Source: Scatophagus argus
Taxonomy: Eukaryota > Chordata > Actinopteri > Scatophagidae
Assembly: GCF_020382885.2 (NCBI RefSeq)
Contig: NC_058513.1
Coordinates: 13,479,641-13,543,640, forward strand
Length of the DNA stretch: 64,000 nt
Reading direction: 5' to 3'
How positions within the stretch are numbered: the first letter of the stretch is position 1; each line of letters opens with the position of its first letter. The position numbers and the translations under genes were made by a program. Positions 9,801 through 39,820 of this stretch are shown here, in pieces. Under the pieces are notes generated by a model. That model made no database searches and had not been told where the DNA came from. It worked only from the letters and a program-made list of their open reading frames with translations.

Positions 9801-11188
9801 AGCTGCTCTAAGCAGTATGTTTCTATCAGCAATGGGCCAATACACTGTGTGTATTATGAAAGACAAACAAACAAATTTTAATTTCTTAGAGAGAGAATAT
9901 CATTTTGGTAATGTGGTGCGCATTAATCAGTTTAAGAGCCAGATATTTTCCCAGCTGGTGGAGACCAGAAACAGAGCTAAAAGCAAAGAAGCAGAAACAA
10001 AAGAAAATGTCAACACATGATTAAATGAATACATTAACCTTTTAATCTCTTTAAATCATAATCGAATGTTGACTCACATCCAAATAACATTACGCATGTT
10101 TTCATTCTGTAGGACAGAAGCTCTTTTGGAGCACAACTTTGACCATGAGTGGCATCATCTGGATTCTTTCTATCTTCTGGGCTGCTGTTCCTCTCATGGG
10201 ATGGGGTGTCTATGACTTTGAGCCTATGAGGACTTGCTGCACGCTGGACTACACCAGAGGGGACAGGTAGAGATGCAAGTGTCCATAGCATTGTGACTTT
10301 TATTTACCATGTTAGTCTACATGCTATTTTCCTATTCATCTCTTTTCAACAGGGACTATGTGACCTACATGCTAACACTGGTGCTGCTCTACCTGATGTT
10401 CCCAGCTGTCACAATGTTGTCATGTTATGATTCCATCCATAAACACTTCAAGAAGGTCCATCATCACAGGGTAAATGTGCTGCAGTAATCTCAAAATCCC
10501 TTTGAATGAAGCTCTCTGCTTCTTTTTTCTTTTCTCTTAATGTTCAGTCAGATTTGCGAGAGAAAATGCACTTTTCTTCTTAACTGGCTTGTTTCAGCTG
10601 TTTCTGTGGTACACAGTGTCTTTTTGTTATTTTGACTGTGATAAATAGCGACAGGGGTTGCTGTTTTAGCATGCTAACGTATGTTGCTAAGGTCAGAATT
10701 GTTATTCTTGATACCTGACTAATGTGCAAAAGACTCAACTGTGATCAGTGGTCATGTGGGGGGGGGACTTAACTTACTTAACTAACTTAACTTAAATGTT
10801 AAAAGAATATTTTGACATTTTCTGGAAAGTTGTTGGCTTTCTTGACAAGAGTTACAAGCTCAGTACCACTCTGGTCTAAATCTGAAGCTGCAGCCAGTAG
10901 ACAGTGGGCTAAGACTGAACTCACATTGTTAGGCTAAACTGAAATATTGATTGATTCAATTCAGTTTATTTATATAGCGCCAATTCACAACAAAAGTTAT
11001 CTCATGACACTTTCCAATTTGAGCAGGTCTAGACCAAACTCTTTAATTGAACTGTAAATACAGAGAGCCCAACATTCCCCCTTGAGCAAGCACTTGGCGA
11101 CAGTGATGAGGAAAAACTGCCTTTTAGAAGGCAGAAACCTCGGAGCAGACCCCGGCTCAAGATGGGCGGCCATCTGCCTTGACCTGGT

Positions 11189-11230
<42 letters not shown>

Positions 11231-12269
11231 AGAGCAAGGGAGAGAGGGTGGGGTGTGAGAGAAGGAGCACACAAGCAGAGATGCATAGCAGCAATAATAA
11301 TACCAGAAGTATCGGAAATGTAAATAATGATAATGACAATGAAGTATACAGAAGGTATTAGGGTGATTTTGATAACAGTAGTAACAATAATGGTAGTAGC
11401 TGTACTGAGTCGTAACAGAATTAAATCAGATTATGACTAAACAGTAGTAATCGCAGTAGGTTTTGATTAGGACGACAGCAGGACTGCAGCAGGAGGTCCA
11501 GTCATGATCGATAGGAATCTGTGGGACAAGAAAGCACAGGGACTCCAGGGAAGAAGTTGAGTTAGTAATATGCATTAATGGGACATAGATGTGTGCAGAA
11601 GGAGAGGGAGAGGAAGAAAGAGCTCAGTGCGTCATGGGAGGGCCCACGGTAGTCTAAGCCTATAGCAGCATAACTAGGGGCCGATAACTTGATAACTAAC
11701 TAAAGTTAGTTATCAAGTTATCAAATATTGCTTTCTTATTTCTAGCTGAATACTGTTAACACTAAACCATCAAGGTTCTAAATCCTCTGCACTGCATCTG
11801 TAATATCCACAGTAACACAATGAACTTTGTTTTCTAGTTTAACACCAGTTTGCCCCTGAGGGTAATGCTGATGTGCTGGGGCCCTTATGTCCTCATGTGC
11901 ATTTATGCCTGCTTCGAGAATGTGAAGGTCGTGTCTCCAAAACTAAGGATGGTGAGCACTTATTCAGTTTAATTCAGTTTAACAATTTACAGTCGAGATG
12001 ATAAAGAAGGAAGGAATTCATGTAACTGCTGTTTGAAGGATAATTGTAGCCAATGTGTTTTGAATAATTGGACTAAACTCTAAATCGAGTGCTTGATAAA
12101 TGATGTAAGTACTTGTTTCTGCTCGCAGGTGCTTCCAGTTGTGGCAAAAACTAATCCCATCTTCAATGCTCTCCTCTACTCATTTGGAAATGAGTTCTAC
12201 CGGGGTGGCGTGTGGCACTTCCTCACCGGACAGAAAATTGTTGATCCGGTTATTAAGAAGTCAAAATGA
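6874..12269 (+). CDS. rgr: RGR, retinal G protein-coupled receptor (RPE-retinal opsin)
   Basis: The gene has seven coding exons: 6874-6949, 7935-8091, 9509-9630, 10113-10266, 10353-10470, 11838-11951 and 12129-12269. All introns are GT-AG with phase kept, giving 293 aa (human RGR is 291-295). Seven-helix opsin features are visible: helix 2 with FNLAVADISLN, the cysteine pair (C87 with the ECL2 C160/C161), a DRYH motif at 111-114 ending helix 3, and helix 7 with VAKTNP. K254 in that last motif is the retinal Schiff-base lysine (human K255). It is followed by NPxxNALLY-type sequence. Family knowledge: RGR binds all-trans-retinal and photoisomerises it to the 11-cis form in RPE and Muller cells. 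The start ATG has a good context (cagcATGG), and exon 1 is short, as in other RGR genes. Fish carry more than one rgr paralogue; which one this is cannot be decided here. Confidence 0.96.
7640..7830 (-). repeat. Dispersed fish repeat fragment in RGR intron 1
   Basis: Reverse-complement reading gives 'cagtggtggtaagtaattaa' followed by tract words such as 'tatgctactttatacttgca'. These resemble the gtactt-type repeat at 3,895-4,500. It sits inside RGR intron 1. Ends and family are not resolved. Confidence 0.4.
8598..9177 (+). mobile_element. tRNA-derived SINE with 13-bp target duplication, itself interrupted by a second SINE
   Basis: The left end has a tRNA-like head with a B-box-like GGGTTCAAATCCC at 8651-8663. 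The body ('gagtttgcatgttctccctg', then 'gggataggctccagctcccc') matches a SINE body very common in fish genomes. A perfect 13-bp direct duplication, tactggagagttg, flanks it at 8585-8597 and 9178-9190. The body breaks at about 8677 and resumes at about 8910, where another SINE has inserted. It lies in RGR intron 2, plus orientation. Confidence 0.85.
8677..8910 (+). mobile_element. Younger SINE nested in the 8598-9177 SINE
   Basis: This insert carries its own B-box-like GGTTCGATTCC at 8690-8700, a 'cccttgagcaaggcacctaa' block, 'gggttaaatgcagagcacga', and a simple tail of atc/ttc repeats. It replaces what should be continuous body sequence of the host SINE. Related fragments occur at 23,394-23,550 (minus) and 53,001-53,165 (plus). 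A target duplication is not clear. Confidence 0.7.
10945..11640. repeat. High-copy teleost interspersed repeat in RGR intron 5
   Basis: The sequence starts 'ttcaattcagtttatttata' and contains 'gagcaagcacttggcgacag' and 'ggaaaaactgccttttagaa', all recognisable from a very abundant fish repeat. It includes a GA microsatellite at 11,191-11,225. Precise ends and class are uncertain. Confidence 0.55.
11191..11225. repeat. (GA)n microsatellite
   Basis: An uninterrupted run of about 35 bases of alternating GA lies inside the larger repeat, followed by impure gaggga units. Confidence 0.95.
11683..11722. repeat. Perfect 40-bp palindrome with 19-bp arms
   Basis: The arm gataacttgataactaact (11683-11701) is followed by a 2-base AA spacer and the exact reverse complement (11704-11722). 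It lies 115 bases before RGR exon 6, and a cruciform or RNA hairpin is possible. Confidence 0.9.
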
Positions 12270-12940
12270 AAGGAAACCGGCAAGAAAACAAACAAACAAA
12301 CAAACCACCATTTGCTCTTACGATAGGTTCCTCATTCCTAATTGGTAAAGTTTTATGAAACCTGCTGATCCATTTAAGTTCCTATACAATTGTAATATTT
12401 TCACATACAGTTGCTCAAAACTCAGGACAACCTCGTTGGAGCCACCACAGTAGCCTCATGCTGGATTTGTGTAAATCTACAAGGTGGTGCTGCAGGTAAT
12501 TCACCCAGTTTAAAGTCACTGTATTCTTTCAACAGCAATTTGTACTTAACATGCACTGCTCATCCATCTCTCATACAATAAACACGCTGTGTTGCTGCTC
12601 TCCTACTGCATGCTCTACTCTGAAGTGCTTTTCAACCTGAATGACTGAGCAGTTGTAAGTAAGAGGCCTAATTTTGACAGCTGACCAGTATACAGAGCTG
12701 CCCTCTCAAGGCACGGCTGTCTCTAGCCCTTACACTAAGCAGATTAATCAGTTGTGTTTTTTGTTAGGAAGACAGTTTGAGGTGATGTAACTTCTATACA
12801 TAGTAAAGAAGCATTCACTGTGTTAAGACTGTATTATGCAATTACACTACAGTCGATAACTAGGGAACTCATTTCTCAGTAGCTTGTTATTTAAGTGCAC
12901 AAATGGACAAATAAAGAATCGGATGTGGTAGACTTTCTTG
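12270..12940 (+). other. rgr: RGR 3' untranslated region
   Basis: AATAAA hexamers lie at 12,577-12,582 and 12,910-12,915, about 310 and 640 bases after the stop. Either could end the transcript. An (AAAC)n run follows the stop at about 12,286-12,304. No other ORF is supported. Confidence 0.55.
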
Positions 12941-12945
12941 GCTCA

Positions 12946-14114
12946 ATCAGAATCAGAATTCCTTTATTTATCCCTGAAGGGAAATTCTTTAAATCAGACT
13001 TGAAGTGAACTTGATTGAACTGTTGAATGTCTCCAACACTTCAATCCCGACTAGTCATGGCAGCCACAGTAACAACATCAGAACCAAAATGTATTTTGCT
13101 CTGTCATACCCACTTCCTTGGAATAAATGCATGCCAATGTCTCTTTTCTAAACACAAGCCAAGTGTTCTTCAGGGCACAGACAAGAAAAGACTGCAGCAT
13201 TCTGATCTTTGAGCTGCTAAATCCAGAAATAAGACACAGTGCGACAAACCGTGTCACACTAACCCCATAGGCGACTGACGTTCGTGCCAGGCAGTCGTCA
13301 GCAGGTGAAATCCTCTCACAGTCTATGACAGCCGTTAATGGAGTAAGAGGAGTTGGCCCTAATGAGAAAGTCGCACAGGTTCAGTGCTATCCAGATATAG
13401 CCCTGTTGACTGCTTACATTAGACATAAACACATTGCATTTAACTCTTGAATGGCAGTGTTGTCAAATTAAAGACACTGTGGAATCAGAAATCATCTCTT
13501 CTTCAGTGTACAGAAAGATTTTTACTAGTCATACTAGCTGCGCTGCTCCAGGGATGCTAAAGTCAATCAGTTGGTCCAACACTTTAGTCTCGACTGAAAT
13601 ATTTCTACAACGATCAAATGGATTCTGACTGTTGCCCAGACTTTAAAGGTTCACAGAGGATGAATCCTACTGACTTTGATGATCACCTCATCTTTCCTCT
13701 TGTGCAAACATAAGGCTGGCATTCGGTGGTTTTGATTTACAAGTCTCAAGAACTGTTGGGTGGATTAATAAGAAATTTCGTACACACGATTCCTTCTCTT
13801 TTTGCTGATCCTCTGTTCTTCCATTTAGCACTATCATCAGATCAAAGTACTAAATCATCAAGTAGTTTAGTTTATGACCAAACACCTGCAAAATTAATGA
13901 TAATTAATGTTACTGCTAATTAGTAAATGCTAGCATACTAACATACTAACACAGCTTGACTGTAGATTCTAGGTGTTACTTTTAAGAACTTTTGCATTTA
14001 GTTGAAATCTTTGGATTTTACATTGCCATGTTTCTGAAAAAAACAAAAAAAAACCAAAAAAAAAAAAAACAAGAATTTCCCTCCAGGGATTAATAAAGGA
14101 ATTCTGATTCTGAT
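12946..14114. repeat. Inverted pair of a short fish repeat flanking about 1.1 kb
   Basis: A unit of about 45 bp at 12,946-12,990 (atcagaatcagaattccttt onward) recurs as its reverse complement at 14,071-14,114, with a poly-A tract beside the second copy. The unit is a common fish motif. The copies may be termini of one element or two independent insertions. The 1.1 kb between them shows no coding signature. Confidence 0.5.
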
Positions 14115-17965: not shown

Positions 17966-19798
17966 CACCACCCTGTGCTCTACAGTCGGGTTATTATTTG
18001 TAAGCCTTTACTGCCCTCTACTTGCAAATAATAATATAACTAGTTTTAAAAAAATAAAACAATGAAAATATGAAAATAAACAAGACTTTTATACTTTTAA
18101 CATGATTCTGAAAATATTTTTTTTTTAAATAAACCAATCTGAATAAACCAGCCTAAAATATGAATGTTGTAAAAGTCAAAAAAGAATAATAAATAAACTT
18201 AAACCAATAGAAAAGTTATTATAGCCTAATTCTGAAATGTCAGTGGGGAATGCCATTAGGTTGCAATGATTAAGCCTGAATAATCGAGTTGTTTTTTAAC
18301 TTTCTGGTTGCTACCACGGAGAGGAGGTAATGACGTGATTTGTTGTGTGTACTTGTAGATTTCCACCACAAGGCGGCGCCCGTGTGTTAAATTTAAAAAG
18401 TGTCTTCCACGTTCCCTGGTCTGTTCGGCGCGGATACGTCAGGACAGAAGAGCAGCACACAATCGCTTTCATCTTAACGCTAAGTTTTATTGGCACGTTT
18501 AGGCTCATTCGCGACATTTTAACGAAGTGAACAGTTTTCATTCACGCAGAAGAAGAAAGTCCCTCGTGCTGGCGTGAGGTTGGGACTGGACCTGTCCATC
18601 AGCCTCGTGGTGCTGAAATCCCCTCAGCTCCTGCAGCGTTTGGGACACCTTTGTTTCTGCACGTACGAATTAAAAAAAAAACCTCATATAATAAGCTGTG
18701 AACTTTGGATGATTATAATTATGATTTTAATGAGAATTAGTGAATGCACTGACTATAAAGCTACAAAGAATATCAGAGTTTTTCTCCCAAAAATCTGTAA
18801 TTATAGATTCTGTCGTTCTTTTAACTATTGTGGTGTTTAAAATATTCTTTAGATGGATGTATAGGCTAAGTACCCCTGTGCACCGTGTGCGTGTGTGTGT
18901 GTGTGTGTGTGTTTGTGCGCACGCCTGCTAATGTTTGGTATTGATGTCTAATTTTGACATCATATAGATTTTCTTTACTAAAGTTTATCATTGCAGTGCT
19001 GTGAGTCTATTAATTCATATTAGAATACTGAATAATGTCTTCCTTAACGTCAGAGTCAAGAGTCTCATACTGGACATTAGGACTAAAAAAAAAGGCTTTT
19101 CTTTCCTCCAGGCTCTTGTGAGGGGGTCGTGATGTGGTGCTCACTGGTTCTTATTGGTTGAAGTGATTGCTGCCATGGTTGGAAATTAACATAAAAGAGG
19201 CAAGTGGCGAAGGGATCCACTTGGGGGCAAGCTGGTGATGCGTCATAGCTCTTGGTGAAAAGGAGAGACAAAAAAAGGGGACTAAAATAGCGCCAAAGCT
19301 CCGGGTTAATGTGCACCAATGGCCACGAAGTCACTTGTGGTTTCAGAGCTGCGCGCAAAAGTGCCACAGGTGATAGGAGGTATGGACACAGAGATGAGAA
19401 GGCTTGAGCGTCCGAGGTGTTGCAAATAAGTAACAAAAAAAATCGCTCCAAACTAACTTTGCCATGTAATACCAGCGGCCGAAAGCTCTGCACGGTGCAG
19501 AAACCCTACGATTTCACCACGTCACTTCTCGGGAGATCATGAAACAACATCGGATGTGGCTGAGGAGAGGACAAGTTGAGGAAGCTGAGGAAAGCCATCT
19601 TCACCGATGAAGCAGCCAAGTTCCTCTTCGCCTCTCCCTTTACGCACAGGCGAGGTGAGGACGGGGAGCATCACATCAATGTAGAGAAAACACCAATGAG
19701 CCATCCCGGGTGTTGAAAAATCGACAACAGACGAGTGAAGCACAACTACATTTTTTAAAAAATTAAAAGTTATTTTAAACAACAAAAAAAAGCACACC
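17966..19798 (+). other. Upstream region of SLC18A3
   Basis: This 1.8 kb between the Tc1 remnant and the transporter start must hold its promoter and 5' UTR. The sequence just before the ATG is A-rich. A (TG)n microsatellite sits at 18,890-18,912. I could not identify a TATA box or a certain donor site for the shared 5' exon known in the mammalian locus. Confidence 0.5.
18890..18912. repeat. (GT)n microsatellite
   Basis: About 23 bases of alternating GT lie upstream of SLC18A3. Confidence 0.9.
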
Positions 19799-21367
19799 AT
19801 GGATGGAGGAGGAGGATCATCCGGGCTGGCCAAATCAGCCGCCGTGAAACTGTCCGAGATGGGCGAAAGAACGAAACAGTTAGGCACCGCGATGAAGGAT
19901 CCCCACCAGCAAAGACGGATCATATTAGTGATTGTTTGCGTGGCTCTCTTGCTGGACAATATGCTCTACATGGTAATCGTGCCAATTATTCCAGACTATC
20001 TCGCTGAGCTGGAGAGTGAGCAGTCAGAGCACGTCCACGTAGTGATGCACCCTAACACTTCAGCCAACAGCACAAGCCAAGACAAAAGCATCAAGGACAA
20101 TTTAGATATCCAGATAGGAGTACTTTTTGCATCTAAAGCCATCCTGCAGCTGTTAGTTAACCCGCTGTCGGGAACTTTCATAGACCGGGTTGGATATGAC
20201 ATTCCACTTTTAATTGGACTGACTGTTATGTTCGTGTCCACCTGCATATTTGCATTTGGTGAGAACTACGCGACGCTCTTTGTGGCCAGAAGTTTGCAGG
20301 GTCTGGGGTCTGCTTTCGCGGACACCTCCGGAATCGCGATGATAGCTGACAAATACACGGAGGAGTCGGAAAGAAGCAAGGCGCTGGGCATCGCTCTGGC
20401 GTTCATCTCTTTCGGGAGTCTGGTGGCGCCTCCTTTCGGGGGTGTCCTGTACGAGTTCGTGGGCAAGCGAGTGCCCTTCATTGTGCTCGCCTGCATTTGC
20501 CTGGCGGACGGCTTTCTGCTGCTGACAGTGATCAAGCCGTTCTCCAACAGGACTAGAGAGAACATGCCAGTCGGCACTCCCATATACAGACTCATGATTG
20601 ATCCGTACATAGCTGTGGTGGCCGGGGCGCTGACGGTGTGCAACATCCCGCTGGCCTTTCTAGAGCCCACCATAGCCAACTGGATGGAGACCACCATGCA
20701 CTCCTCTCAGTGGGAGATGGGGCTCACCTGGCTCCCAGCCTTCTTCCCTCACGTCTTCGGTGTGTACATAACAGTTAAACTGGCAGCGAAGAATCCAAAT
20801 TTGCAGTGGTTCTACGGAGCTTTAGGTATGGTTATCATAGGAGCGAGCTCCTGCACAGTCCCTGCATGCAAAACTTTTGGGCAGCTCATCGCCCCGCTGT
20901 GCGGTATTTGTTTTGGCATCGCACTGGTAGACACCGCCCTGCTGCCGACACTTGCGTTTTTAGTCGATGTGCGTCATGTTTCGGTGTATGGTAGTGTTTA
21001 TGCTATAGCGGATATTTCATATTCTGTCGCATATGCTATGGGTCCTATAGTGGCGGGTCAGATAGTGCACAGCCTCGGGTTTGTACAGCTTAATCTCGGT
21101 ATGGGCCTCGTCAATGTGCTTTACGCGCCAGCCCTGCTTCTGCTGCGCAACGTGTGCCAAATGAAACCGTCCTACTCAGAGAGAGATAACCTGTTAGAGG
21201 AGGCTCCGCAGGGGTTGTACGATACTATCAAGATGGAGGAGAGGAGGGCTAAAAAGAAGGGCTACAGTTCGGCGGGGAACTGCTTGTCAGTAGATGAGAA
21301 TGGATTTGACCCCTTCAGAGCACAGCGGTCCTTGTCAGAAGAGTCGTCCGGTCAGGAGTACACTTAG
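19799..21367 (+). CDS. slc18a3: SLC18A3, vesicular acetylcholine transporter (VAChT)
   Basis: A single uninterrupted frame of 522 aa; human VAChT is 532 aa and also intronless. It is a proton/acetylcholine antiporter of the major facilitator superfamily with about 12 membrane spans, loading acetylcholine into synaptic vesicles. Span 1 carries the conserved aspartate (D53 in [19 protein letters not shown]). A luminal loop follows with two N-glycosylation sequons (N86, N90). Span 10 contains D405 in [12 protein letters not shown], matching the functionally essential D398 of rat VAChT. The cytoplasmic tail has a dileucine sorting signal, ERDNLLEE (L465-L466), used for vesicle targeting. The start has a strong context (caccATGG). 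Its position upstream of CHAT on the same strand is the conserved 'cholinergic gene locus'. The VMAT family (SLC18A1/2) is the alternative, but the intronless frame and CHAT linkage settle it. Confidence 0.98.
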
Positions 21368-26739: not shown

Positions 26740-29108
26740 ATGCCCACTTTTAACATTAGCCTCATTTGCCCTACTATTTTTGTTCAAATTTATGCAAAAA
26801 CTGAGCCCTTTCCATGCTTGCATCAGGAATGTATGTGTATATTCAAGTCTCTCAATGCACTCCGTAGCCATTTATCCCGCTTTCACACCAGAAGCGTGGC
26901 TCAACCGCAAACTGTAGACTCTCAAGTGAAGTTTCGCTGTTTGTCATGTGAATTTCTTGAACCTTGCACTGAAACTGAATACTTCCACTCAGCTGAGGAA
27001 TATTCACTTAAAAGTAAAACACAACGTTGATTGTCCTTATAAAGACTGTACGTTTCTGAGTAGTGTATACTCCACTTTCAATGCACACAAAAGTAAAACA
27101 CATAAAGAGCATACTTGGAAGAATTTCAAATCTGAAATAATTGTCAGTATAACCAATGATGCTCGTGATGAAGCAGCCCATGAAAGCCAGGGTGAGCTAG
27201 AGCAACTGGCAACTTCTGACACAGAAGACCTAGAGGTCATGGAAGAAGCCTGCAATGATCTTTGTGGTTTAGGAAAACAGCTTGAACATAATCTAGCATC
27301 TCTGTTACTGAAAACGCAAATTATTCTGCATATCCCAGAGAGAGCTGTGCAAGAAGTGATACAACACCTTTGCCAAATACATGACCTGTCATAACCATAC
27401 TGTACAGTAATGTCAAGACGGTACTTAAGAAACTTTATTCCAATGTGGATGAATTAGTTGTAAAAGAAAGTATCTGCGCTGTTTCAGAAAGTAACGTGAT
27501 GACATCATTGTGCGGCAAACATGGATATCTTGGAACTGTAAAAAAGCGGGCAGCCTATGTGAGGAATAAGTTTCCCCTGGTGATGCCTATAGAATATGTT
27601 GTTGAAAAAGGCACAAAAACAGTTGCATACGTCCCCATACAACACATGCTACAGAAACTATTAAACAAAACTGACATTTTAGATAAACCAATGTCAGAAG
27701 AGGTGCATGTTCCACATGAATGTAGTTCACATGCCGATGGAGAGCACTTGAAGGAAAATTGCCTTCTTTCAGTGGATGAGTTCACAGTTGCACTGATACT
27801 ATATGTTGATGACTTTGAAGCAGCCAATCCTTTGGGAACATCAAAGCAGAAACACAAAAAATGTGCAGTGTATTGGGTTATTGTTAATGTCTGCCAAATA
27901 CGATCAATGCTACACTCTATTCAGCTCGCTCTACCTCCACAATCAAACAGTGTGGTTATGAGAAAGTTCTGCAACCTCTTATCCGTGATCTTGTCTCATT
28001 AGAACAGCCTGGTGTTTATGTAGAGCAGCTAGGCACAAGTGTGAAGGGAACAGTTTTGTTCGTAGCAGCTGATAACCTTGCCACACATTTAATTGCAGGT
28101 TTCCATGAGTTCTTCACAGCAAACAAATTTTGCAGAGTCTGCATTGCATCCAGAGGTGACATTCAGCAACAAGAGGTAAGTTCTGGTTTGTTTCATCTCT
28201 GAGATAAAAACTGTCATGACAGGCATGTGCAAGAGGTGAAGACTCAAGCTTAAGTCAAAACTCTGGGGTGAAAGGACAGTGTCCTCTCACTAAAAGTCTG
28301 AAACACTTCCATGTGGTCATGGGTTACCCTCCGGGCATTTTACATGATGTCCAGGAAGGAATTGTCCCCATTGAGGTGTCTCTGTGTCTGACAGACCTGA
28401 TTGGCAAGAACTTATACTGTAGATATGCCAAATGAGGCTATCAGATCCTTTAATTACACGTTTACAGACAAGACTGATCAGCCTCAGAAAATTGGCAAAG
28501 CATTTTCAACCAAAGGGACCATTGGTGGAAATGGTCACAAGAACTGGTCCATCATTAGGCATCTTGCACTTTTTATTGGTCACTGTGTCTCTGAGGGAAA
28601 TAACTCTTGAGAAATTCTCATGCTCCTCAAAGATATTGTGGAGCTTGTTGTGGCACCTAAGCACAGGCCACTGATGACACGCTGCACTTTCTGGAATGCA
28701 AGGTGGCAGAGCACAGAGAGCTGCTGCAGTCAACATTTCCAAATTTAAGGTTCCGACCAAAAGATCACTATGTGGAACATTACCCAAACTTTTCCACACC
28801 ACAAAAGTCCACAGACTTTGCGCTCTTTGCAACCACGCTCCTCAGCATCTTTCTCGCGCTAAACAAAACGCATCACCTGACCGCATGCCTGAACCCGGCC
28901 CGAGTCCGCGTATAATGATGGAAACTAACCGATCCAGCCCATCGGGTCCCGTCAGGCTCGGACAAAGATCTTCAGCTCTAGCCCTGACTCTTGCTACTAA
29001 ACACCAGAAAGCACTCAGCTACTATTTGGACTGTAGCTCATTTTGGTTGCAATGGTCTTGGTCACATCTTTTCCCAGTGATTTTCAGAGATTACTCCCTC
29101 AAAACATA
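26740..29108 (+). pseudogene. Broken transposase-like gene with two C2H2 zinc fingers
   Basis: The coding relic is spread over several frames. A C2H2-like finger spans about 26,815-26,886 (C-x4-C, HLSRFH) and a second, in another frame, spans about 27,032-27,105 (CPYKDC, HKSKTH). An acidic linker follows to 27,394. A core in frame 1 (27,445-27,950) contains LILYVDDFEAANPLG. It shifts frame at about 27,951 and continues through LFVAADNLATHLIAGFHEFF and KFCRVCIASRGD to about 28,170, ending at a donor-like gag|gtaagt. Near 28,327-28,360 lies PPGILHDVQEG, which resembles the His-Asp...Glu-Gly motif of CACTA-type transposases. The family is widespread in fish as uncharacterised zinc-finger proteins. 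Multiple frameshifts and stops show it is not functional as read. Confidence 0.6.
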
Positions 29109-30596
29109 ACCACTCCTGGGTCAGTGCTTGTTGCATCATCTGTCTGCATTAGTGGAAGTATAACACAGATATGATGCTCTGTATTGGTTCCTGTTCAGAT
29201 CTCCCTGAATTTGGTTAGATTACACAGATTGTTGCAGCTAATCCAGACATTTTGTTTGTCTGCAAAGAAATGACAGCATGGTAGCATGAGCACTTTCGGT
29301 CCTAACAGCTATGCTACACTGATGGCCCTTCTATGTGTGCAGTTAATCTGTCTGATTTAAATGATGTCTTTCCACTGTCGGCATACAAAGTACAAGGGGA
29401 GCTTATGGTAACTCTCAATCGATTTCTTATTTGCTAAAAGTGTCCATGTTTCTTTTTTTTTGCTCAGATGGCTACACAACAGAAGCTGATGATGATAGTT
29501 ATTTTTTGTGAGGGGGACATACGAAAAATGACAATGACTCCTGGTCCAAATGGAACAAATATTCTTGCATTTGCTCATTTTGTATGTATTCTACAGAGGA
29601 CACGTTAGAAAGCTGCAGTTTTTTAAAGCGAGTCTGGTCCTCACTGCATAGTTGTTCTTAATACCCGCTTTGTCGTGTGGCACACAAAGCATACAGTATT
29701 TCCTTTTGTCAGTGTTGTTGTTTTTTTTCAGACTTGAAAATTGTTCACAGAACAAACAATTAAAAAACGGTGCTGTGATTGTATATGGAAGGAAATGGTT
29801 TCATAATTCAATACACAGGTTCTGTATTAAACAGTAAGCAAAAAGTAAGAATATACTGCTGTAATTGTTGGCCCATTTTTTACTGTTATTTTGGATTTGC
29901 ATCTGATATTTCACACAGCATCATTGTTAACACAAAATTGTTGCTTTGTTATGTGTCTAAATAAAATAAATAAAATGTACTGTGTTGTGTGGTCATTAAT
30001 AGAAGAAGATTTTAATTGGAATTTTCTTATCCCAAATATAATATTTTAACAAAACTTGAATTTTAAGTGTATCTGATTTATAATATTAGGTTCTGATTGC
30101 GCTACATTTAAGTTGACTCAGTTTTTTTCTATTATTATGTAAACCATTTAAGTGTATATAATTTAAAAATGTTAAATGGCTATTGCACATTTAACGTGAC
30201 TGTACTTGAACAAATTAATTTTCTCTACTGTCAGTTACTTAAACCATTTGAGGCAATCATTTAATACAAATGGTTTAAGTACAATCAACTTATCCGGGTT
30301 TACAGTATACTCTGAAAATAAGTACAAATAATCTTAGTGTATTGGTCAAAATGTTTTAGGCATATCTTTAGGAAAAATGAAACAAGTTTTCAAGATGCAC
30401 ATCTCTTTCCAGCCGTTAGTGATGAGGCGCAGCTGGAATTAGGAAGAAAAATGTTGAACAACGGAAGCCTTGTTGGTTCACTTTCAGACGGTGCTGTGAT
30501 GTAGAGTCACTGCTCAGCAGGCCTAATTTTATTTACTTTCCCCCCCTTTTACATCTCTGCTCTTTTTCCTCAAATGTCTTCACATGCTTCATGCAG

Positions 30597-30670
30597 GGGG
30601 AGGCTGCACTCAAACCGTCTCTACGGGATTTCACAGTATTTTCCCCCCTTGAATGGACTAGAATTCAGAG
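30597..30670 (+). other. chat: CHAT 5' UTR portion of the start exon
   Basis: A pyrimidine-rich tract ending in tcatgcag precedes 30,597, so the start exon probably begins here by splicing from an upstream non-coding exon. The segment contains the in-frame stop at 30,659-30,661. Confidence 0.5.
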
Positions 30671-33600
30671 ATGCCAATCTTGGAGAAAGAGACGACCACA
30701 GACCGAGACAGCCAAGTATGAAAACATTTTTTTTAACATCCTTACACGATATTTTCACCTTTTCAGAAGGTCATAACACAGAGTGCTGTCGCTGTCCACG
30801 GTCCTGAAGTGAATTTCAGCACCTCGGACAGCGGCAGCTTCACTTCAGCTATTTGACCGCTAGCGGCAAAAACACTGACAGGCCATTCTCAACCACTCAA
30901 GTTCTGTAGTTCTGTACGAATGTGAGATTCTTGTACTTCACACAAGTGTTTCCATTTCAAGCAGCTTGATACCGCAATGAGTATTTTTACTTTTGGATAC
31001 TGTAATAAGCGCTTCATTCCTTTTACTTATAGTGGAGTATTTTTATCATATATATGTTATAATGTCCACAAAGGAAGTAGCAGAAGCAGCACTCAAACAA
31101 CCACTGACCAAGCTGAACTAAGATTTATTTGCAAAAAATTATAAAAAAAAAGTCTTAACTGAGAGTCCGTAATATCCGTAATATGAGTCCAAGCAAGTGA
31201 ACACTGAGTCCAGAGAAGGTGGAATCATGGTCTGCTTGGCAGGTGAGTCCAGTGTGGTCTGGTAGCTGATGAGGAACAGGAAGGGAACTGTCCAGGAAAC
31301 TCACAGGGGAGGCTTAATAGAAGCGGTAACACCAGGGGATTTCAGGAGACAGAGCAGTGAACCTGTGACACAGGAAAAAGAGGATTAGCCACTGGAAACA
31401 ACAACCTTTCATTGAGAAATAAGAAACAGATACTAATAAAATCAGTCACACCATACAGATATACAAACAGGGGTAAGGAACTACTGAAGCTGAGGCTTTC
31501 CAAACGAAAGGTAGGCTGCCGAGGGAAGATATCCCAAAGAAGAGCCACCCTGAAGCAGAAAGTTCACACACTTCCACACGCTCGCACAATGTCGCGAGGC
31601 CAACTAGGAGTGCACAGATGAACAGAGCAAACAAGAAGGAGATACGACCACCCAAGATGCCACCCAGCCACTGTTGGTCCTCTGCTCTTAAAGGAGACAA
31701 AGAAGTGAACATAAGCTTTGGGGGAAAGAAAACCAGCAAAATAAAGAAACGCTCTGCACAGAAATAAATTAAGAGAAGGTGACTGAGCACATAACCTACA
31801 ATGCAGGAAGAACTGAATACCACCAATCAATGCAAAATACATCACCAATGGGGGATCATGAGCAGGTCACTTCAGAGGGAGGAAAGTCACTACAGAGGAA
31901 CCTATGAAAAATCATAAATGTCAATATGACTGTAGTTTAGGGGAATAATCTGGAGAACAAACAACACAGACATTGTCCCCATACCCACAACAATTAGAGA
32001 GGTTTACAGAACAGGAGAGTGGGTCGGGTTTTCAGCAGGAGAGAAAGAGAGAGTTGGACAACGGTTAGCTGCATTTAAAGGATTCCCACACCCTATGACT
32101 GGCTAGTGATCACCAGCTAAGCAGGAAAAAGGAAATCATACAGGCCTGCAGGGGCCACATTGAGTTGCTAATGGCGGCATTATGCAACTGATCAAACATA
32201 AGAGATAATCAATTTGCATGTTCCATTCTTTAACAAGAGTGTTTTCAAGTTGTACAAGAATGTGGGACTTGAAAACACTCCAAGCACCGAAGATGAATCA
32301 TTAACTCGGGTTCTAATAATAAAATTGTAAAGAAAACTAACTTTAACTAATGAACAGTCAGTGAATCACAGCAAGAACAGCTGCTGCCCTTTCATTACAC
32401 GTTATGACTATTTACACCAATGTGTTGTTTTTGTGACATCAGGTGTTGCCAAAGGTCCCTGTGCCACCACTGAAACAAACCCTTGACACATACTTGAAGT
32501 GTGTCCAACACCTGATTAAGGAGGATCAGTTTAAGAAGACAAAGACCATCGTGGAGAAGTTTGGGGCTCCTGGAGGTGTGGGAGAAGTTCTCCAGAAGAA
32601 GCTCTTAGAGAGGAGGGACAAGACGACCAACTGGGTAAACAAAAAAAAAACCCAAAAAATAAGAATGATCTTTGCTGTAGACGCATGAACTGGAGAAAAA
32701 GAACAAATCCTGCTCGATTTTCCCTTGTGTCAATAAAAATTTGTTTGGACTTATTAGTCATTAAGCATAGCTGCATGTGTTTTTCCCTTGTACCTTTTCT
32801 AGTTCATCAAACACTACTTTGGAAAACTCAGTACAGTCACTGTAAAATCATTAATGAACTCCCTTCAGTTACTATATTTTTGCTTTATTATTATCATTTT
32901 AATTCAGTTTATTGAATTTGACCTTTCAAAACACAATATGTGTAATTAGCATGAGTTTTGCTTGCAGTGTTTTGTAACAATAACACATAAAACTGTGCAT
33001 ATGCTCTATTAAGTCTGAGGATAAAACTGAAAACTGGCCCAGATTTTGTCTAAAATATGACATAATTCCTAAAATAACATATAACCCATTCATAAAGGAA
33101 ATGAAAAATAGTGAATCACCTGACGCTGAAGATTTATCGGAGCCTCTGCTCGTCCTTTGTTGCTTCAATCTGTCCTCCTGCCTCCCGTCTGGGTGATCGG
33201 TCAGTCCACAGCTCATCCAGCTCAGTGAAATCTATCAGGCGCCCACTCACACGCCGACTCTCTCCCTCTCTTTCCATCTGGCAGTGATACACTGTAATGG
33301 TCTTTTACTCCACTGCACACAGGTCTGAACACTGAAAGTAATAACTTGAGTCCAAAACGCTTAACGAGGCAACATTTCTCAAAGAAAAGTGTCTGTGCTT
33401 GTCTGTGACTGTGGTTTTATTCAGGTCTATGACTACTGGCTGGAGGACATGTACCTGAACAACAGGTTGGCCTTGCCAGTCAACTCCAGTCCTGTCATGG
33501 TGTTCCCTAAGCAGACATTCAGAGACCACAAAGATGCCCTCAGGTATGTGCTGGAGTTTTATTTCTGATTTTATTCAGACTGTAAAATGTTTATCCACTC

Positions 33601-36600
33601 ACCTTTTTTAGCTGTTACAATGCATAACTATTAACTACTAGATCATTGCAGATGGCTTGAGAATATCCACGTGTCAGGTTCTCTTGAAAACTACTGAAAA
33701 CAACATCCTCTAAACTGCATAGGTTTCGTTTTCCAACTACAATACAATCTATGACTCACTTTTGCAGCCACTGACAGGGTTTTTGTTCTTGTCAGCAGGC
33801 ACAAACTCAGATTAAGATCTGAGTTACAGAAACGGACAAAAAAAAAAAAAAAAAAAATCACTGGCGTTGTCTCCTGGCCAAAGCTCTACTCGTTATTCAA
33901 TGGGCCATGCGCCCACCAGACATCACACCAGTCCATCCAGCCCTGTAACTCAACATTAGCTTTTGTCAGCTCGTGCCGCACTAACTGAATATTTCCAGAG
34001 CACCCCCGAGCTGGTAATCCACTCACACAGACACTCATTAGATTGGGAGTGACAGGACCAAGCTCTCCACAGAGACTGCTAGTCAGGCCTCATTTAAGGG
34101 TGTGGTGCTCTGCGGCCGCCTCCTTTGTATTGATCTGGCTTTGAACGTAATAACGCTGAGACAAATGACACACAGCATAAGACCTGACAGGGCTCTGTGT
34201 TTTCCCTATTTGCCCACACCGCCCACTCACACATACAGACTGTCTCTCTCACTAACACAGATAAACACACACAGCTCGCCCACTGTATCCTAGTAATTTA
34301 CCATAATGTTATTACTGTTAGCCCTTTGAGAGATGGGAGTACATCTAATTCTAAACTGTTTGCTGTGTATGGTCACCTCAAATTCTGCACCCTATTTTCT
34401 TTTTTAATTTCAAACTTTTTACTCTTTCAAGATTTGCGGCTCATCTGATCAGAGGAGTGCTGGACTACAAGGCTCTCGTTGATACGTAAGTTTCACCTGT
34501 AATGGATTACCTGCCAACCTGCACGTCTCAGACCTCATCTGTGAATTTAAGATGAAAATAAAACGAAGTACAAGCGCGAGAGTCATCTGAGGTAGTCTGA
34601 TGTGTGTAATAATGTCTCGCAGGCGAGCGCTGAAAGTGGATTTTGCTCGAGGCCAGCTAGCTGGGACCCCCATGTGCATGGAGCAGTACTACCGCCTCTT
34701 CACCTCCTACCGCTACCCGGCACTAAAGACAGACATGCTGAAGGTCCAGATGAATGCAGCCTCCTCAGCGCCGGAGCACATCATTGTAGCGTGCAAGAAC
34801 CAGGTCAGGACGCCGGCCTCTGAGGACACTTTTCACACTCCATCACACTTCTGACTGAAGACAACACAAGTATAATGTTATAAGAGTGTATTAAGTTTAT
34901 TGATGGATGGAGAAAGGTGACATTCTTTTTTATATGAATGTTATTTTCTTACCATGAGAGACATGGTGTACGTGCTGCTGTAATGGCCTCTAATGCAGAT
35001 ACGTGATTCCTTCATCAGATTTCAAACTACAGGACCACTGAGAGCACCTAAATTGCAACGGATTTCAAAGAGGATGAGCACAACGTCACAAAAATCACAT
35101 CACTCTATTACATCACAAAAAATGATGTAATAGACAAACAAAATACAAAATACAAAATGCTAAACTGAAAAAGTATAGTACAACATGTTCACTTCAAGTA
35201 CCCAGTACTATTACTCCTCACCATCTGGCAGATGGCTAATCATTTGACCGATTTTATCTATAATTTGAATTTCAAATGGTTTAGGAGAGTTAGAGCTGAG
35301 CACAGATGCATTTTGTAGCTCCACTTTCTTCATAAAATTATTGATTCTATGTAGGAATGTTAAAATGTCCATTTGTGTCTCTTTTTGAGCTACAGCCAAG
35401 AGCGGCAGGAGCTGAGAGCCTAAAGGTTTTGGGTAGACTCACATACACTACATGGTTCAAATTATACATGCAAAAGCTGCATTTTGTGTATTTCTCAACT
35501 GATGCAGGTCCAAAGCAACTATTTTGGTAGCTCATGGATTGTGGCCTTAAATTAACACAAACAAAGTCACAGCAGGAGCTTCCACCTGGAAATGGTTCTG
35601 GGAACTATCAGTCTGTGGCACATAAGGGCCTGTCCCTATGGAGATACAGACAGTTAACTAAATTATTGCTGATTGAATCTGACACTTTGCCTCCTTAAGT
35701 CATATGTTTAACTGATAGCTGCACAGTAGAGGAGCCATATTTGAGGTAGCAATTTAGGCACTATCATTATCAGCACTATCAGTGTCCTATTTATCTTATT
35801 TTTCTTTATTTCTTAGATATAAATAATTATTAGCAGGCAAGGACACAGCTAAACACAAGTATTCACTATCAGATGACACAGAAGAAGAGTTAAGAAACAC
35901 ATGATTTCTGTACTGTTTTTCTCACTAGTTTTTCGTATTGGATGTAATTGCAAACAACAAACAGCTCAATGAGACGGAGCTGTTATCCCAGCTGGAGAAA
36001 ATCATGAAAATGTCAGAAAATGCTGAAGAGAGACTTCCTCCTATTGGTATCCTAACATCTGACGGGAGAACCGAATGGGCACAGGCCAGGGAAGCATTAA
36101 CAAAAGGTCTCAGCTCTAATTTTTCTCACTTTCAGATGTTTCAAACAAAAGTAAACACTTTCCAGACAAGTAAACCAAGACACATCTCACCTCCTTTCCT
36201 CTCCTGTCCAGATCAAACCAACAGGGACTCTCTGGCTCTGATCGAGAGCTGCCTATGCTTGGTGTGTCTGGATGAGCCCAGTGGAGTAAAGCCCAGGGAC
36301 ACTACCAGGGCCCTACTGTTGCTGCACGGTGGCGGCCGTGACAAGAATGGGGCAAACCGCTGGTATGACAAGTCACTGCAGGTAGGTCTACATTCAAGGC
36401 ACTTCAAATCCTCCACGAATGTCTGGTTTGTTAGCTAATCCATCCTCTCTCAGTTTGTTGTAGGAATGGACGGAGTCTGCGGAGTCGTGTGTGAGCATTC
36501 GCCATTTGAAGGAATAGTTCTGGTGCAGTGCTCTGAACACGTGATGAAATACATGTAAGACATCACTCAATATTATGCTCTCAATGAATGTGGCTGAGGC

Positions 36601-39600
36601 CAACAATAAAGGAAGGGTTGTTGTTGTGCCGCACAGAACAGGAAGTCCGTCCAAGATGGCGAGGACCTCCAGCATCAGGGAGCTTCCCCCTCCAAGGAAG
36701 CTGCTCTGGAAATGTAACCCACACATCCAGGGACTCTTAGCAGCATCTGGAGACAGACTGCAGAGGCAAGACCAACATAACAAACACGTAAACATGTCCA
36801 TGATTAAGTCTTTCTACGGATGTCTGGTTACATGTTTTCTGTGCTTTCTCCTTCAGGCTGGTGAATAATCTTGATATGGATGTTCTTACATTCAAAGCCT
36901 ATGGGAAAGATTTCATCAAAAAACAGAAGATGAGCCCAGATGCATTCATACAAGTTGCCTTACAACTTGCATTTTACAAGTAAAGCACATTCATAATATG
37001 TATTGTCAAGTTTGATGAAACAACTCCTAATTTGCCCTTCCAAACATTCTGACATCGCCATGATCATGTCGGTCATATACTCAGGTGCAATGGAAGGCTC
37101 GTGTCTACTTATGAGAGTGCATCCATTCGGCGTTTCCAAGAAGGTCGGGTTGATAACATTCGCTCGGCCACCCCTGAGGCCCTGGCCTTTGTGAATGCCA
37201 TGACAGATGGGATGGCCACTTTAACTGTGAGTCATTTTTCTCACTTTGACCCCTCAATTACCGAGTAACTCCCACATTACTGGTCATCACACCTGCTTAA
37301 ATGAAACAGGTGCGACCAGCCGCCTCGGCACTCCAAACTCAATCCCCCACTCCTTCATTCAAATAGATGATCTCCCTGCAGATATAACGGGTCTGTGAAA
37401 AATGAATTTAATGGCTATATTTCTCTCTTTTTGTACATTGTGTAAAATGATTTTTTCAACAGGATGCAGATAAAATTAAACGACTGAGGGATGCAGTTAA
37501 TGCTCAGACAAATTACACCATTGCTGTAAGTATTTCAAACCACTTTTAACATTATTGTGATAGCCAGAATTTAAATTTGTAAACTAAACAACCACACATG
37601 ACGTAAAAATGTTGCTCTATTTCATTTATGAGTATGAAATACTCACTCTCTGAAGACCTATAGGAACAGTTCGAGAAATGCGCTTCAGCATTTTATTGCT
37701 GAAGGGCAGATTAAGTTGCCATGATATAACATGTTAACTGGTGAACTTGGTTACAACTTAGGTGCTTGTAGGGCTCTTTTTGTATAACTTAAAGAAGACG
37801 GGCTAACCTTCAAACTCTTTCAAGGTATAGTCCAGCAGCAGCCCAGGTAATTCTGGAAACATGGTCAACAATATAATCTGACATCACAGACTGGAAAATG
37901 TGCTGTACACAAAGCAAGGACTTCCACTGTCAAATTGAGGTACTAACTGAAAATATTTCATTAGCGTTAAGCAATGAAGAAATATCTTTCAGGCTATTAC
38001 GGGAATGGCAATAGACAATCATCTCCTCGGGCTTCTGAGGATCGCAAAGGATCTTAACATGGAGAAGCCAGAGATCTTCTGTGATGAGACGTATCTGATC
38101 AGTAACCAATTCATCCTTTCAACCAGTCAGGTAACCTGAGGTCTGATTATTCTCTAACAAACAATGTTTTAACACTTAAAATTATTTAAGTATACGTGCA
38201 TATTCATCTACCTTCCTAGAACCCTAGGAGTCATCATATTCCTCATCACACAGGGATTCTTCTGTTGAGGAAATACTGGTGCTGTTATTAAGTTGCTGCT
38301 TTGTATATCATCCATTCTAACTTCCTCCTCTGTTGAGCAGACGCACAGTAAAACACCCAAAGTCACTCCAACAAAATTAGATTCATATACACACACAGAG
38401 ACTCCTATTTGAGCCTCATTAAGCTGTGAAGGGAAATTCAGTTCTTGAAACCCAGAAACATCATCTGCCTTATCAAGGTGGAAATGGTGGTGATCAACCA
38501 TTTTCTCTTGGAAGTCCATACTGACCTTTACCAGTCACAAAAGATAACTGCCATTGGCAAATTTGATCAAGCCTGTTAATGCTGTGTTGTCTCACCTTGA
38601 TGTCAAGGTGAGAAAACCCAACCCAACCCTCCAGCAGAAGGGAAACCAAGCACAAATACGTGACGAAGAGGGACTTCAAAAATAGTCCCTGTAGTCATTT
38701 TAAAAGGAACTGAGACTCCAAAGGTGCATTGGCAGCACAACCAAATTTCACAAAATGCACAGGACTAATTAAAAATATTTTGTTTATGTTGCTGTTCGGC
38801 ATCCTCACCAAGGGCTTGGTACTTCCTGATGTAGTCTCTTTAATTGGAGACTCTGCCAGACTTAAGTACTACCCTCAGCATTGAGTTTATTCCCTTAGAC
38901 CAACTCTGTGTGTAGCATTAGTTCTCTTGACAACACTTGAACCCCACACACAAATAATATTTTATGTTGCTGCATTATTATACAACTTACTGAGACATGT
39001 TGTCTAAGTGTATTAAGTGACTATGGTATGACTTTTCCAATTTCTGGTAGCAAAACAAAGAACGTCTACCGTTTATCAAAGCAGTAACTTGTCAAATTCA
39101 CACCACTGATGTGTAATCATTTGAAATTATCCATGCCAGAAAAAATATGTTCATTTTTCTACACTATTGCCACTAAATAAAGGTGACTGGATAATGCTAT
39201 ATTCATCAAAACTTTGCTGTTTTACACATTTTGTGACTACTGACTGTATCTTTTAGGTCATTGTCAAGAAAAATACAAAAACATTTAATGGTTTCAACTT
39301 GTCAAATGTTGAAATTTTCATTGCAAAGACAATGTTTTTGGATTCTGGACTGTTGGTTGGACAAAATAAGCTTTTTGAAGATGTCATGCTAGGCTCTGGG
39401 AATGTGCAATGAGCTTTTTTCTTCATTCTATTACAGTTTATGGTATAAATTAATAATTGAAAACAGAATCAGCCAATAAAATCAATAGTACTTATCAGCT
39501 TGTTCTCTTGATTGGCTAAACTGATCTAACCCAGACTTTCCTTTCGTATCCAGGTCCCTACCACAGTGGAAATGTTCTGTTGCTACGGCCCAGTGGTGCC

Positions 39601-39820
39601 CAACGGCTACGGCGTCTGCTACAACCCGCAGTCAGACCACATCATCTTCTGTGTGTCTAGTTTCTGGGAGAACACAGAGACGAGTTCGGCCGTTTTTGTC
39701 AAAGCCCTGACTGAGGGCCTGCTGGAAATCAGGGACCTGTGCAATGTAAGCAGCGCCATGGCTACCAAAGCGCCTGAGAGCAGCCAAGGAGCCGGCCAGC
39801 CTCATAAATCAGGGAAGTAA
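30671..39820 (+). CDS. chat: CHAT, choline O-acetyltransferase
   Basis: There are 14 coding exons: 30671-30715, 32443-32634, 33425-33543, 34432-34485, 34623-34803, 35929-36106, 36212-36381, 36454-36554, 36637-36765, 36857-36979, 37085-37226, 37463-37525, 37993-38130 and 39554-39820. They sum to 1,902 bp, 633 aa (mammalian short form 630). CHAT transfers acetyl from acetyl-CoA to choline in cholinergic nerve terminals. The start exon encodes only 15 residues; an in-frame TAG four codons upstream (30,659-30,661) fixes the ATG. The catalytic histidine is H328 in CEHSPFEG (exon 8; rat H324). Also visible are the LHGGG and [11 protein letters not shown] block, the CoA-binding region [10 protein letters not shown] (exon 10), and the choline-pocket region STSQ|VPTT across the last junction. 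All introns are GT-AG except intron 9 (36,766-36,856), which begins GC. Intron 6 (105 bp) is stop-free and a multiple of three. Carnitine acyltransferases are relatives, but length and SLC18A3 linkage identify CHAT. Confidence 0.98.
30788..30808 (-). promoter_or_regulatory. RE1/NRSE-like REST site, minus strand
   Basis: Read on the minus strand this 21-mer starts TTCAGGACC and ends GGACAGCGAC. By my count it matches 17 of 21 positions of the RE1 consensus, including both half-sites (TTCAG and GGACAGCG). REST/NRSF represses neuronal genes outside neurons and is known to act on the mammalian cholinergic locus. It sits 73 bases after the CHAT start exon, in intron 1. Confidence 0.65.
30815..30835 (+). 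promoter_or_regulatory. RE1/NRSE-like REST site, plus strand
   Basis: This 21-mer starts TTCAGCACC and ends GGACAGCGGC, matching 19 of 21 consensus positions by my count. It lies 6 bases from the minus-strand site in the opposite orientation, forming a double element in CHAT intron 1. Confidence 0.8.
31060..32170. repeat. Probable dispersed repeat in CHAT intron 1
   Basis: The low-complexity, purine-rich style, many short direct words (gagtcca, ggaac, cagag) and absence of any coding signature resemble non-autonomous fish repeats. Ends, terminal repeats and family are not defined. A gtactt-type fragment lies just upstream (about 30,930-31,060). Confidence 0.3.
32237..32280. repeat. Hairpin with 14-bp perfect arms
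   Basis: gagtgttttcaagt (32,237-32,250) is followed after 16 bases by its exact reverse complement (32,267-32,280), in CHAT intron 1, 163 bases before exon 2. Confidence 0.85.
35104..35134. repeat. Hairpin with 12-bp perfect arms
   Basis: tctattacatca and its exact reverse complement are separated by a 7-base loop, caaaaaa, in CHAT intron 5. Confidence 0.85.
38590..38613. repeat. 24-bp palindrome with 11-bp arms
   Basis: tctcaccttga, then tg, then tcaaggtgaga: perfect arms with a 2-base centre, in the last CHAT intron (38,131-39,553). That intron is otherwise without recognisable elements. Confidence 0.85.

What the first reader, a model, noticed from the sequence alone, without database searches (positions are those of the whole stretch)
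30788..30835. Back-to-back double RE1/NRSE just after the CHAT start exon
Two 21-bp RE1-like sites in opposite orientation are separated by 6 bases; by my count one matches the consensus at 19 of 21 positions, the other at 17. In mammals the described RE1 of the cholinergic locus is in the 5' flank. Here the pair is inside CHAT intron 1, about 9.4 kb downstream of the SLC18A3 stop. A paired, convergent arrangement could bind REST more strongly and silence both genes.
Basis: partly seen in the sequence, partly recalled or inferred. Interest (0 to 1): 0.7.

Follow-up and report, generated by a model that had tools for sequence, protein, structure and literature searches.

The report
Head-to-head REST silencer pair in CHAT
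A fish gene for making acetylcholine carries, just after its start exon, two mirror-image copies of the DNA switch that keeps nerve genes off outside the nervous system; the switch is well known, the tight mirror-image pairing is unusual, and whether it works has not been tested.

Summary
Two canonical-gap RE1 sites lie at 30788-30808 (-, 17/21; 19/21 with linker free) and 30815-30835 (+, 19/21; 20/21), 6 bp apart and 72 bp after the CHAT start-exon donor; 0 of 100 shuffles matched. Correction: the TTCAG ends face each other, so the sites are head-to-head, not convergent. The minus-strand site has G at position 6, a variant found 89 times in this 571-Mb genome against 5 for the reversed control, so it looks real too. 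An exact head-to-head search (core gap 0-30) returns only this locus; tail-to-tail returns two. RE1 clusters as such are not rare: 4 of 53 sampled loci. The 5' flank has no canonical RE1 but one atypical candidate (11-bp gap, 17/19) at 18588-18617, 1.2 kb before VAChT. The pair is absent from the duplicate CHAT locus. Other fish and REST binding could not be tested. Best reading: an intronic REST silencer of CHAT, perhaps acting with the 5' candidate on VAChT. Bold reading: the palindrome, the most stable 60-nt plus-strand fold sampled, would put an RE1 duplex into CHAT pre-mRNA.

The parts
30788..30808 (-). RE1/NRSE site A, TTCAGGACCGTGGACAGCGAC (G at position 6)
   Evidence: variant enriched genome-wide
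30809..30814 (.). 6-bp gap GTGAAT between the two sites
30815..30835 (+). RE1/NRSE site B, TTCAGCACCTCGGACAGCGGC (fits the degenerate consensus)
30785..30838 (.). 24-nt inverted repeat, 83% complementary, 6-nt loop; inside the most stable 60-nt plus-strand fold sampled in the window
30804..30848 (.). second, perfect 10-nt inverted repeat CTGAAGTGAA / TTCACTTCAG bracketing site B
18588..18617 (-). atypical RE1 candidate, TTCAGCACC, 11-bp gap, GGACAGGTCC, about 1.2 kb 5' of the VAChT ATG
   Evidence: gap-11 class 13 to 1 over control genome-wide
30597..30715 (+). CHAT start exon as inferred (ATG at 30671, [15 protein letters not shown]; donor GT at 30716; acceptor-like CAG ending at 30596)
32446..39802 (+). 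remaining CHAT coding exons (span of tblastn matches to human CHAT)
   Evidence: Pfam PF00755 on one exon
19799..21367 (+). SLC18A3 (VAChT) single-exon open reading frame, 522 aa; MFS_1 domain
   Evidence: the gene name is recalled

Best explanation
It is an intronic REST silencer made of two RE1 sites in head-to-head arrangement. Shown: two RE1 sequences 6 bp apart, 72 bp after the CHAT start exon, each of a class strongly enriched in this genome. Inferred: REST binds both, one molecule per site, B probably more strongly than A. In non-neuronal cells and progenitors it recruits corepressors and keeps CHAT shut; loss of REST in neurons releases it. VAChT, 9.4 kb upstream in the same nested locus, may be covered by the pair, by the atypical RE1 candidate 1.2 kb before its ATG, or by both together. 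Zinc fingers 7-8 read the left half-site and 3-5 the right (PMC8096226), so head-to-head sites turn the C-terminal sides of two REST molecules (CoREST-binding, recalled) towards each other; the site centres are 27 bp or 2.6 helix turns apart, so the proteins would sit on roughly opposite faces.
For: Sites and shuffles. Genome-wide excess over reversed control: consensus 1080 to 72, G-at-6 variant 89 to 5. Position after the CHAT start exon. CHAT is a listed REST target, bound in at least 14 human cell types (PMC4055426, passage), and among genes with an NRSE within 100 kb shared by frog, mouse and human that human REST ChIP-seq supports (PMC4430910, section 9 and passages). Two REST molecules can bind one multi-NRSE probe (PMC8096226, section 22). 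Double NRSEs restrict reporters to the nervous system in zebrafish (PMC3531662; PMC3529185, passages). Other close RE1 clusters exist in this genome, one beside a T-type calcium-channel exon.
Against: No binding, expression or cross-species data. The duplicate CHAT/VAChT locus has no canonical RE1 of 17/21 or better (linker free) in 70 kb except an 18/21 match in a coding exon of a neighbouring LRR gene, so a CHAT-intron RE1 is not needed at every CHAT copy. The 5' candidate could be the main silencer. Two sites 6 bp apart may hinder each other. Tandem NRSEs placed only at a UAS reporter did not restrict it.
Confidence: 0.75

Rival explanations
1. Only site B is a working RE1; site A is a weak copy, and the pairing has no special function.
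For: Site A has G at position 6, outside the degenerate consensus. [quoted passage not shown]
Against: The G-at-6 core TCAGGACCNNGGACAG occurs 89 times against 5 in the reversed control, so it is a used variant. Confidence was lowered from 0.35 to 0.25 after that call.
Confidence: 0.25
2. The main silencer of the locus is the 5' atypical-gap RE1 (18588-18617), as in mammals; the intronic pair is an accessory or lineage-specific addition.
For: TTCAGCACC plus an 11-bp gap and GGACAGGTCC, 17 of 19 bases; 0.002 expected per 64 kb by base composition over 11 gap sizes. The gap-11 pattern occurs 13 times genome-wide against 1 in the control. Human CELSR3 has left-11bp-right motifs under a REST peak. 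The duplicate locus has its only TTCAGCACC in 70 kb also about 1.2 kb before VAChT. Mammalian repression maps to about 4 kb upstream of the R exon (PMC3053374, passage).
Against: ChIP-nexus gaps in human were 2 or 7-9 bp (PMC8096226, passage), and MPRA silencing beyond the canonical gap was seen at 8-9 bp (PMC9903721, passage). In the duplicate locus the partner half-site is weak (7/10, gap 6), 2 of 5 shuffles of that sequence gave 2 hits at 15/19 or better and 1 gave one, and the flanks of the two places do not align beyond 10 bases.
Confidence: 0.2
3. The palindrome acts as RNA: transcribed with CHAT pre-mRNA it folds into a hairpin whose stem is an RE1 duplex, which captures REST (like the reported NRSE dsRNA) or is processed to a small RNA.
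For: Fold -39.8 kcal/mol, z -5.2; best 60-nt plus-strand window sampled, -35.9 against -27.0 for the next. An NRSE double-stranded RNA binding REST more tightly than the DNA has been reported (reviewed in PMC4753637, section 9 passages; PMC12839409, passages).
Against: Any inverted GC-rich pair folds well, so the z-score follows from the DNA layout. No Rfam match in the window. The stem has a 2x2 and a 1x1 internal loop. The same review says that effects of NRSE-RNA expression vectors were probably due to plasmid DNA. No transcript data.
Confidence: 0.05
4. Chance: two RE1-like strings without function.
For: No conservation evidence; the duplicate locus lacks the pair.
Against: 0 of 100 shuffles match; by base composition about 1.7 sites of 19/21 or better and 0.05 of 20/21 or better (linker free) are expected in the whole genome; and the two sit together at a known REST target.
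Confidence: 0.05

Closest known systems
RE1/NRSE of the mammalian cholinergic gene locus
   Same: REST silencer element of the same nested CHAT/VAChT locus
   Different: In mammals the region repressing in non-neuronal cells is within about 4 kb upstream of the R exon (PMC3053374, passage citing Lonnerberg 1996; the 1996 paper is not held). Here two canonical sites are in the first coding intron; the 5' side has only an atypical-gap candidate.
Multi-NRSE REST peaks of human CELSR3 and PCDH gamma
   Same: Several NRSE motifs within a few bases; two REST molecules per probe by EMSA (PMC8096226, section 22)
   Different: Those are tandem, CELSR3 with left-11bp-right half-sites; here two canonical 2-bp-gap sites are inverted. 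The 5' candidate at 18588 does share the 11-bp gap.
Dual RE1 of KCC2 (SLC12A5)
   Same: Two RE1 sites serving one neuronal gene
   Different: The KCC2 sites flank the transcription start (PMC7730145, passage; the primary paper is not held).
Zebrafish double-NRSE transgene elements (REx2, 2xNRSE)
   Same: Two NRSEs close together bias expression to the nervous system in fish
   Different: Artificial; REx2 has a 27-bp spacer with both sites on one strand (PMC3531662), 2xNRSE is a tandem repeat (PMC3529185, passages).
NRSE dsRNA / small modulatory RNA
   Same: RE1 sequence as an RNA duplex, which this palindrome could form if transcribed
   Different: No RNA evidence here; the passages read name no genomic source of this kind.

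Membership tests
Canonical RE1/NRSE | Left half-site TTCAGCACC and right half-site GGACAGCGCC with a 2-bp gap | tested here: met
   Site B 19/21 (20/21 linker free); site A 17/21 (19/21 linker free)
Canonical RE1/NRSE | Fits NTYAGMRCCNNRGMSAG, site B | tested here: met
   No deviating position
Canonical RE1/NRSE | Fits NTYAGMRCCNNRGMSAG, site A | tested here: not met
   G at position 6. A is therefore called a near-consensus variant; the variant class is enriched 89 to 5
Canonical RE1/NRSE | More than chance | tested here: met
   0 of 100 shuffles; 1080 to 72 genome-wide
Functional REST silencer | Bound by REST in vivo | not testable with these tools
   No ChIP data at hand
Functional REST silencer | Conserved across species | not testable with these tools
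   No other fish genome searchable; the tool says G000 has no relatives here
Functional REST silencer | Present in the duplicate CHAT locus of the same genome (supporting, not required) | tested here: not met
   Best half-sites 7/9 and 7/10 in the 2,295 bp between VAChT stop and CHAT exon 2 on C10
Atypical-gap NRSE (18588-18617) | Both half-sites with a gap used by REST (7-9 bp in ChIP-nexus; 11 bp in CELSR3) | tested here: inconclusive
   9/9 and 8/10 with gap 11; gap-11 pattern 13 to 1 over control; gap 11 is outside the 7-9 bp class but described at CELSR3
Rfam RNA family | Match to a curated RNA family | tested here: not met
   No match in the window at gathering scores

The most novel reading that the evidence does not exclude
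The head-to-head pair is a two-way switch: as DNA it holds two REST molecules and silences CHAT; once CHAT is transcribed, the same 48 bp leaves the polymerase as an RE1-duplex hairpin that captures residual REST and locks the cholinergic locus open. It would be a gene-borne source for an NRSE-type double-stranded RNA.
Probability: 0.03. Interest if true: 0.85.

Novelty: new variant of a known kind. Interest (0 to 1): 0.42.

Why it matters
CHAT is a textbook REST target, but the described mammalian silencer is upstream of the locus. A tight head-to-head RE1 pair in the first coding intron, the only one of its kind found in this genome, is a natural test of whether mirrored RE1s act cooperatively. 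Together with the atypical 5' candidate it suggests REST elements at both ends of the VAChT-to-CHAT interval. That NRSE positions move between vertebrates is already known (PMC4430910, passage). The duplicate locus without the pair is a built-in control: the two copies should differ in leakage outside neurons.

Tried and rejected
Canonical 5'-flank RE1: none of 17/21 or better (linker free) in the window outside the pair; three 16/21 strings (14992, 19697, 35028) against 0.54 expected by composition were not followed. In the 20 kb upstream the best, 16/21 at C21:13476240, and its partner in the duplicate locus, 18/21 at C10:10804910, lie in an LRR-gene coding exon and were rejected as regulatory evidence. 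That scan's other extra window hit at its cut-off, 15/19 with gap 6 at 1429, is no better than shuffles give.

Duplicate-locus conservation: negative for the pair. No start exon of the ATG-CCN-ATH-YTN type was found between VAChT and exon 2 on C10, so the introns may not be strictly equivalent.

Known RNA or tRNA at the hairpin: none. Gene identity of RE1 clusters: the 94-aa frame of L075 had no match, its 33-residue core matched T-type calcium channels; L074 and L076 gave no host gene recognisable by eye; L077 was fetched but not examined.

Not answered: the count of direct RE1 repeats. Literature on paired RE1s: searches (3 papers; 7; 41, 15 listed) showed no head-to-head intronic pair in CHAT; they cover open-licence PMC only, and only listings and the cited passages were read.

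Full report
What is there. The window lies on contig C21 of a 571-Mb, 48-contig genome. An acceptor-like pyrimidine tract and CAG end at 30596, so the start exon is probably internal, as expected for the nested cholinergic locus.

The pair. Site A reads TTCAGGACCGTGGACAGCGAC on the minus strand at 30788-30808; site B reads TTCAGCACCTCGGACAGCGGC on the plus strand at 30815-30835; the gap is GTGAAT. Against TTCAGCACCACGGACAGCGCC they score 17 and 19 of 21, and 19 and 20 with the two linker bases free. With up to 3 mismatches no other place in the window matches, and none of 100 dinucleotide shuffles matches. Site B fits the degenerate consensus; site A departs at position 6 only. That variant, TCAGGACCNNGGACAG, occurs 89 times in the genome against 5 for the reversed control (at least 11 lie in local clusters on C15 and C23), so it is a class in use. 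Their departure at position 20 is not a defect: among 56 canonical sites sampled it is C in 19, A in 17, G in 11 and T in 9.

Orientation. The TTCAG ends face each other, so the sites diverge. 'Back-to-back' fits, 'convergent' does not. The centres are 27 bp or 2.6 helix turns apart. The layout is a 24-nt inverted repeat (83%) with a 6-nt loop, and a second perfect 10-nt inverted repeat brackets site B.

How unusual. The degenerate 16-mer occurs 1080 times against 72 for the control; random placement would give about 0.10 pairs at gaps up to 30 bp. An exact-pattern search that allows A, C or G at position 6, requires GGACAG and spans core gaps of 0-30 returns one head-to-head place, this one, and two tail-to-tail places, C2:6707762 and C24:7032817; both controls were 0. 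Weaker pairs are outside that pattern, and direct repeats could not be counted. In 53 sampled canonical loci 4 have a second site of at least 17/21 within 55 bp, two tail-to-tail and two direct; two more have only a 16/21 string; in composition shuffles 2 of 2650 loci had a hit of at least 17. One cluster lies about 600 bp past an exon matching T-type calcium channels. Close RE1 clusters are recurrent here; the head-to-head form is rare. Zebrafish work also noted NRSEs within 30 bp of another (PMC3531662, section 13).

Elsewhere in the locus. Canonical sites: besides the pair the best in the window are three 16/21 strings against 0.54 expected; in 20 kb further upstream one 16/21 inside an LRR coding exon, with an 18/21 at the equivalent coding place of the duplicate locus. 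Atypical gaps: a scan with gaps of 2-12 bp finds TTCAGCACC-11-GGACAGGTCC at 18588-18617 on the minus strand, about 1.2 kb before the VAChT ATG, 17 of 19 bases. Composition predicts 0.002 such matches per 64 kb over 11 gap sizes, and 1 of 40 Markov sequences reached even 16. TTCAGCACC with an 11-bp gap and GGACAG occurs 13 times in the genome against 1 for the control. The 11-bp gap is described at human CELSR3 but lies outside the 7-9 bp class of ChIP-nexus and the 8-9 bp silencing class of an MPRA (PMC9903721, passage).

The duplicate locus. C10 carries a second VAChT (80% identical protein) and CHAT, with flanking genes in the same order. The 2,295 bp between its VAChT stop and CHAT exon 2 hold no half-site better than 7 of 9 or 7 of 10. 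The pair was thus either gained after the duplication or lost from one copy. Its only TTCAGCACC in 70 kb is also about 1.2 kb before VAChT, but on the other strand, with a weak right half (gap 6, 16/19 in all); 2 of 5 shuffles gave two hits at 15/19 or better and 1 gave one, and the two places share no more than 10 aligned bases, so this is only suggestive.

What it most likely does. CHAT is an established REST target (PMC4055426, passage; PMC4430910, section 9). In mammals the region repressing in non-neuronal cells is upstream of the R exon (PMC3053374, passage). The simplest reading is a REST silencer with one REST per site, relieved in neurons, possibly sharing the work with the 5' candidate. 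That REST binds, that both sites are used, and that VAChT is also controlled are inferences. Support for two sites acting better than one is indirect and mixed: two-NRSE elements worked best in one zebrafish study, in which four copies also cut brain expression; tandem NRSEs restricted driver but not UAS-reporter transgenes in another; multi-NRSE probes gave two EMSA bands. The fingers that read each half-site would place the C-terminal sides of the two REST molecules face to face; that these sides carry CoREST binding is recalled.

The RNA reading. The transcript would fold into a hairpin of -39.8 kcal/mol (z -5.2), and 30781-30840 is the most stable of the 60-nt plus-strand windows sampled every 10 nt, -35.9 against -27.0 for the next. 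This follows from two mirrored GC-rich sites and is no evidence of function by itself. It is kept as the boldest reading because an RE1-sequence RNA duplex that binds REST has been reported, with disputed expression-vector data (PMC4753637, section 9 passages).

Verdict. A real, well-scoring double RE1 in a fitting place, of a known kind, in an unusual geometry, with a possible atypical partner before VAChT. Function, conservation and cooperativity are open and easy to test.

Noticed in passing
window 7938-8043, 9591-9639, 10174-10272, 12111-12270: Stretches 5' of VAChT that align with the duplicate locus on C10 (68-84% identity, same order): candidate conserved enhancers or an R-like noncoding exon of the cholinergic locus.
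   Followed up: no
C21:13476240 and C10:10804910 (outside the window): RE1-like 16/21 and 18/21 strings (linker free) in the same coding exon of a leucine-rich-repeat gene in both duplicate loci; conserved as protein (SVPWTAF), so a coding look-alike of RE1.
   Followed up: partly
window 26948-28002: Two ORFs without a Pfam match between VAChT and CHAT; the VAChT-to-CHAT-exon-2 interval is about 11 kb here and 2.3 kb in the duplicate locus, so insertion of a mobile-type gene is possible.
   Followed up: partly
window 12943-12999 and 14070-14114: Two short stretches 91% and 100% identical to C10:10841519-10841573, on opposite strands: likely a dispersed repeat.
   Followed up: no
C24:7032817-7032864; C2:6707762-6707813: The two tail-to-tail RE1 pairs found genome-wide; the C24 pair is an almost perfect palindrome.
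   Followed up: no
G000 genome-wide, 13 places incl. C21:13498232-13498257: TTCAGCACC with an 11-bp gap and GGACAG occurs 13 times against 1 for the reversed control, hinting that REST in this fish uses an 11-bp gap.
   Followed up: no
window 204-2449: Minus-strand gene with fibronectin type III (Pfam) and leucine-rich/immunoglobulin-like parts, LRIT-like by recall, next to a related LRR gene upstream; both also lie beside the duplicate VAChT locus.
   Followed up: partly
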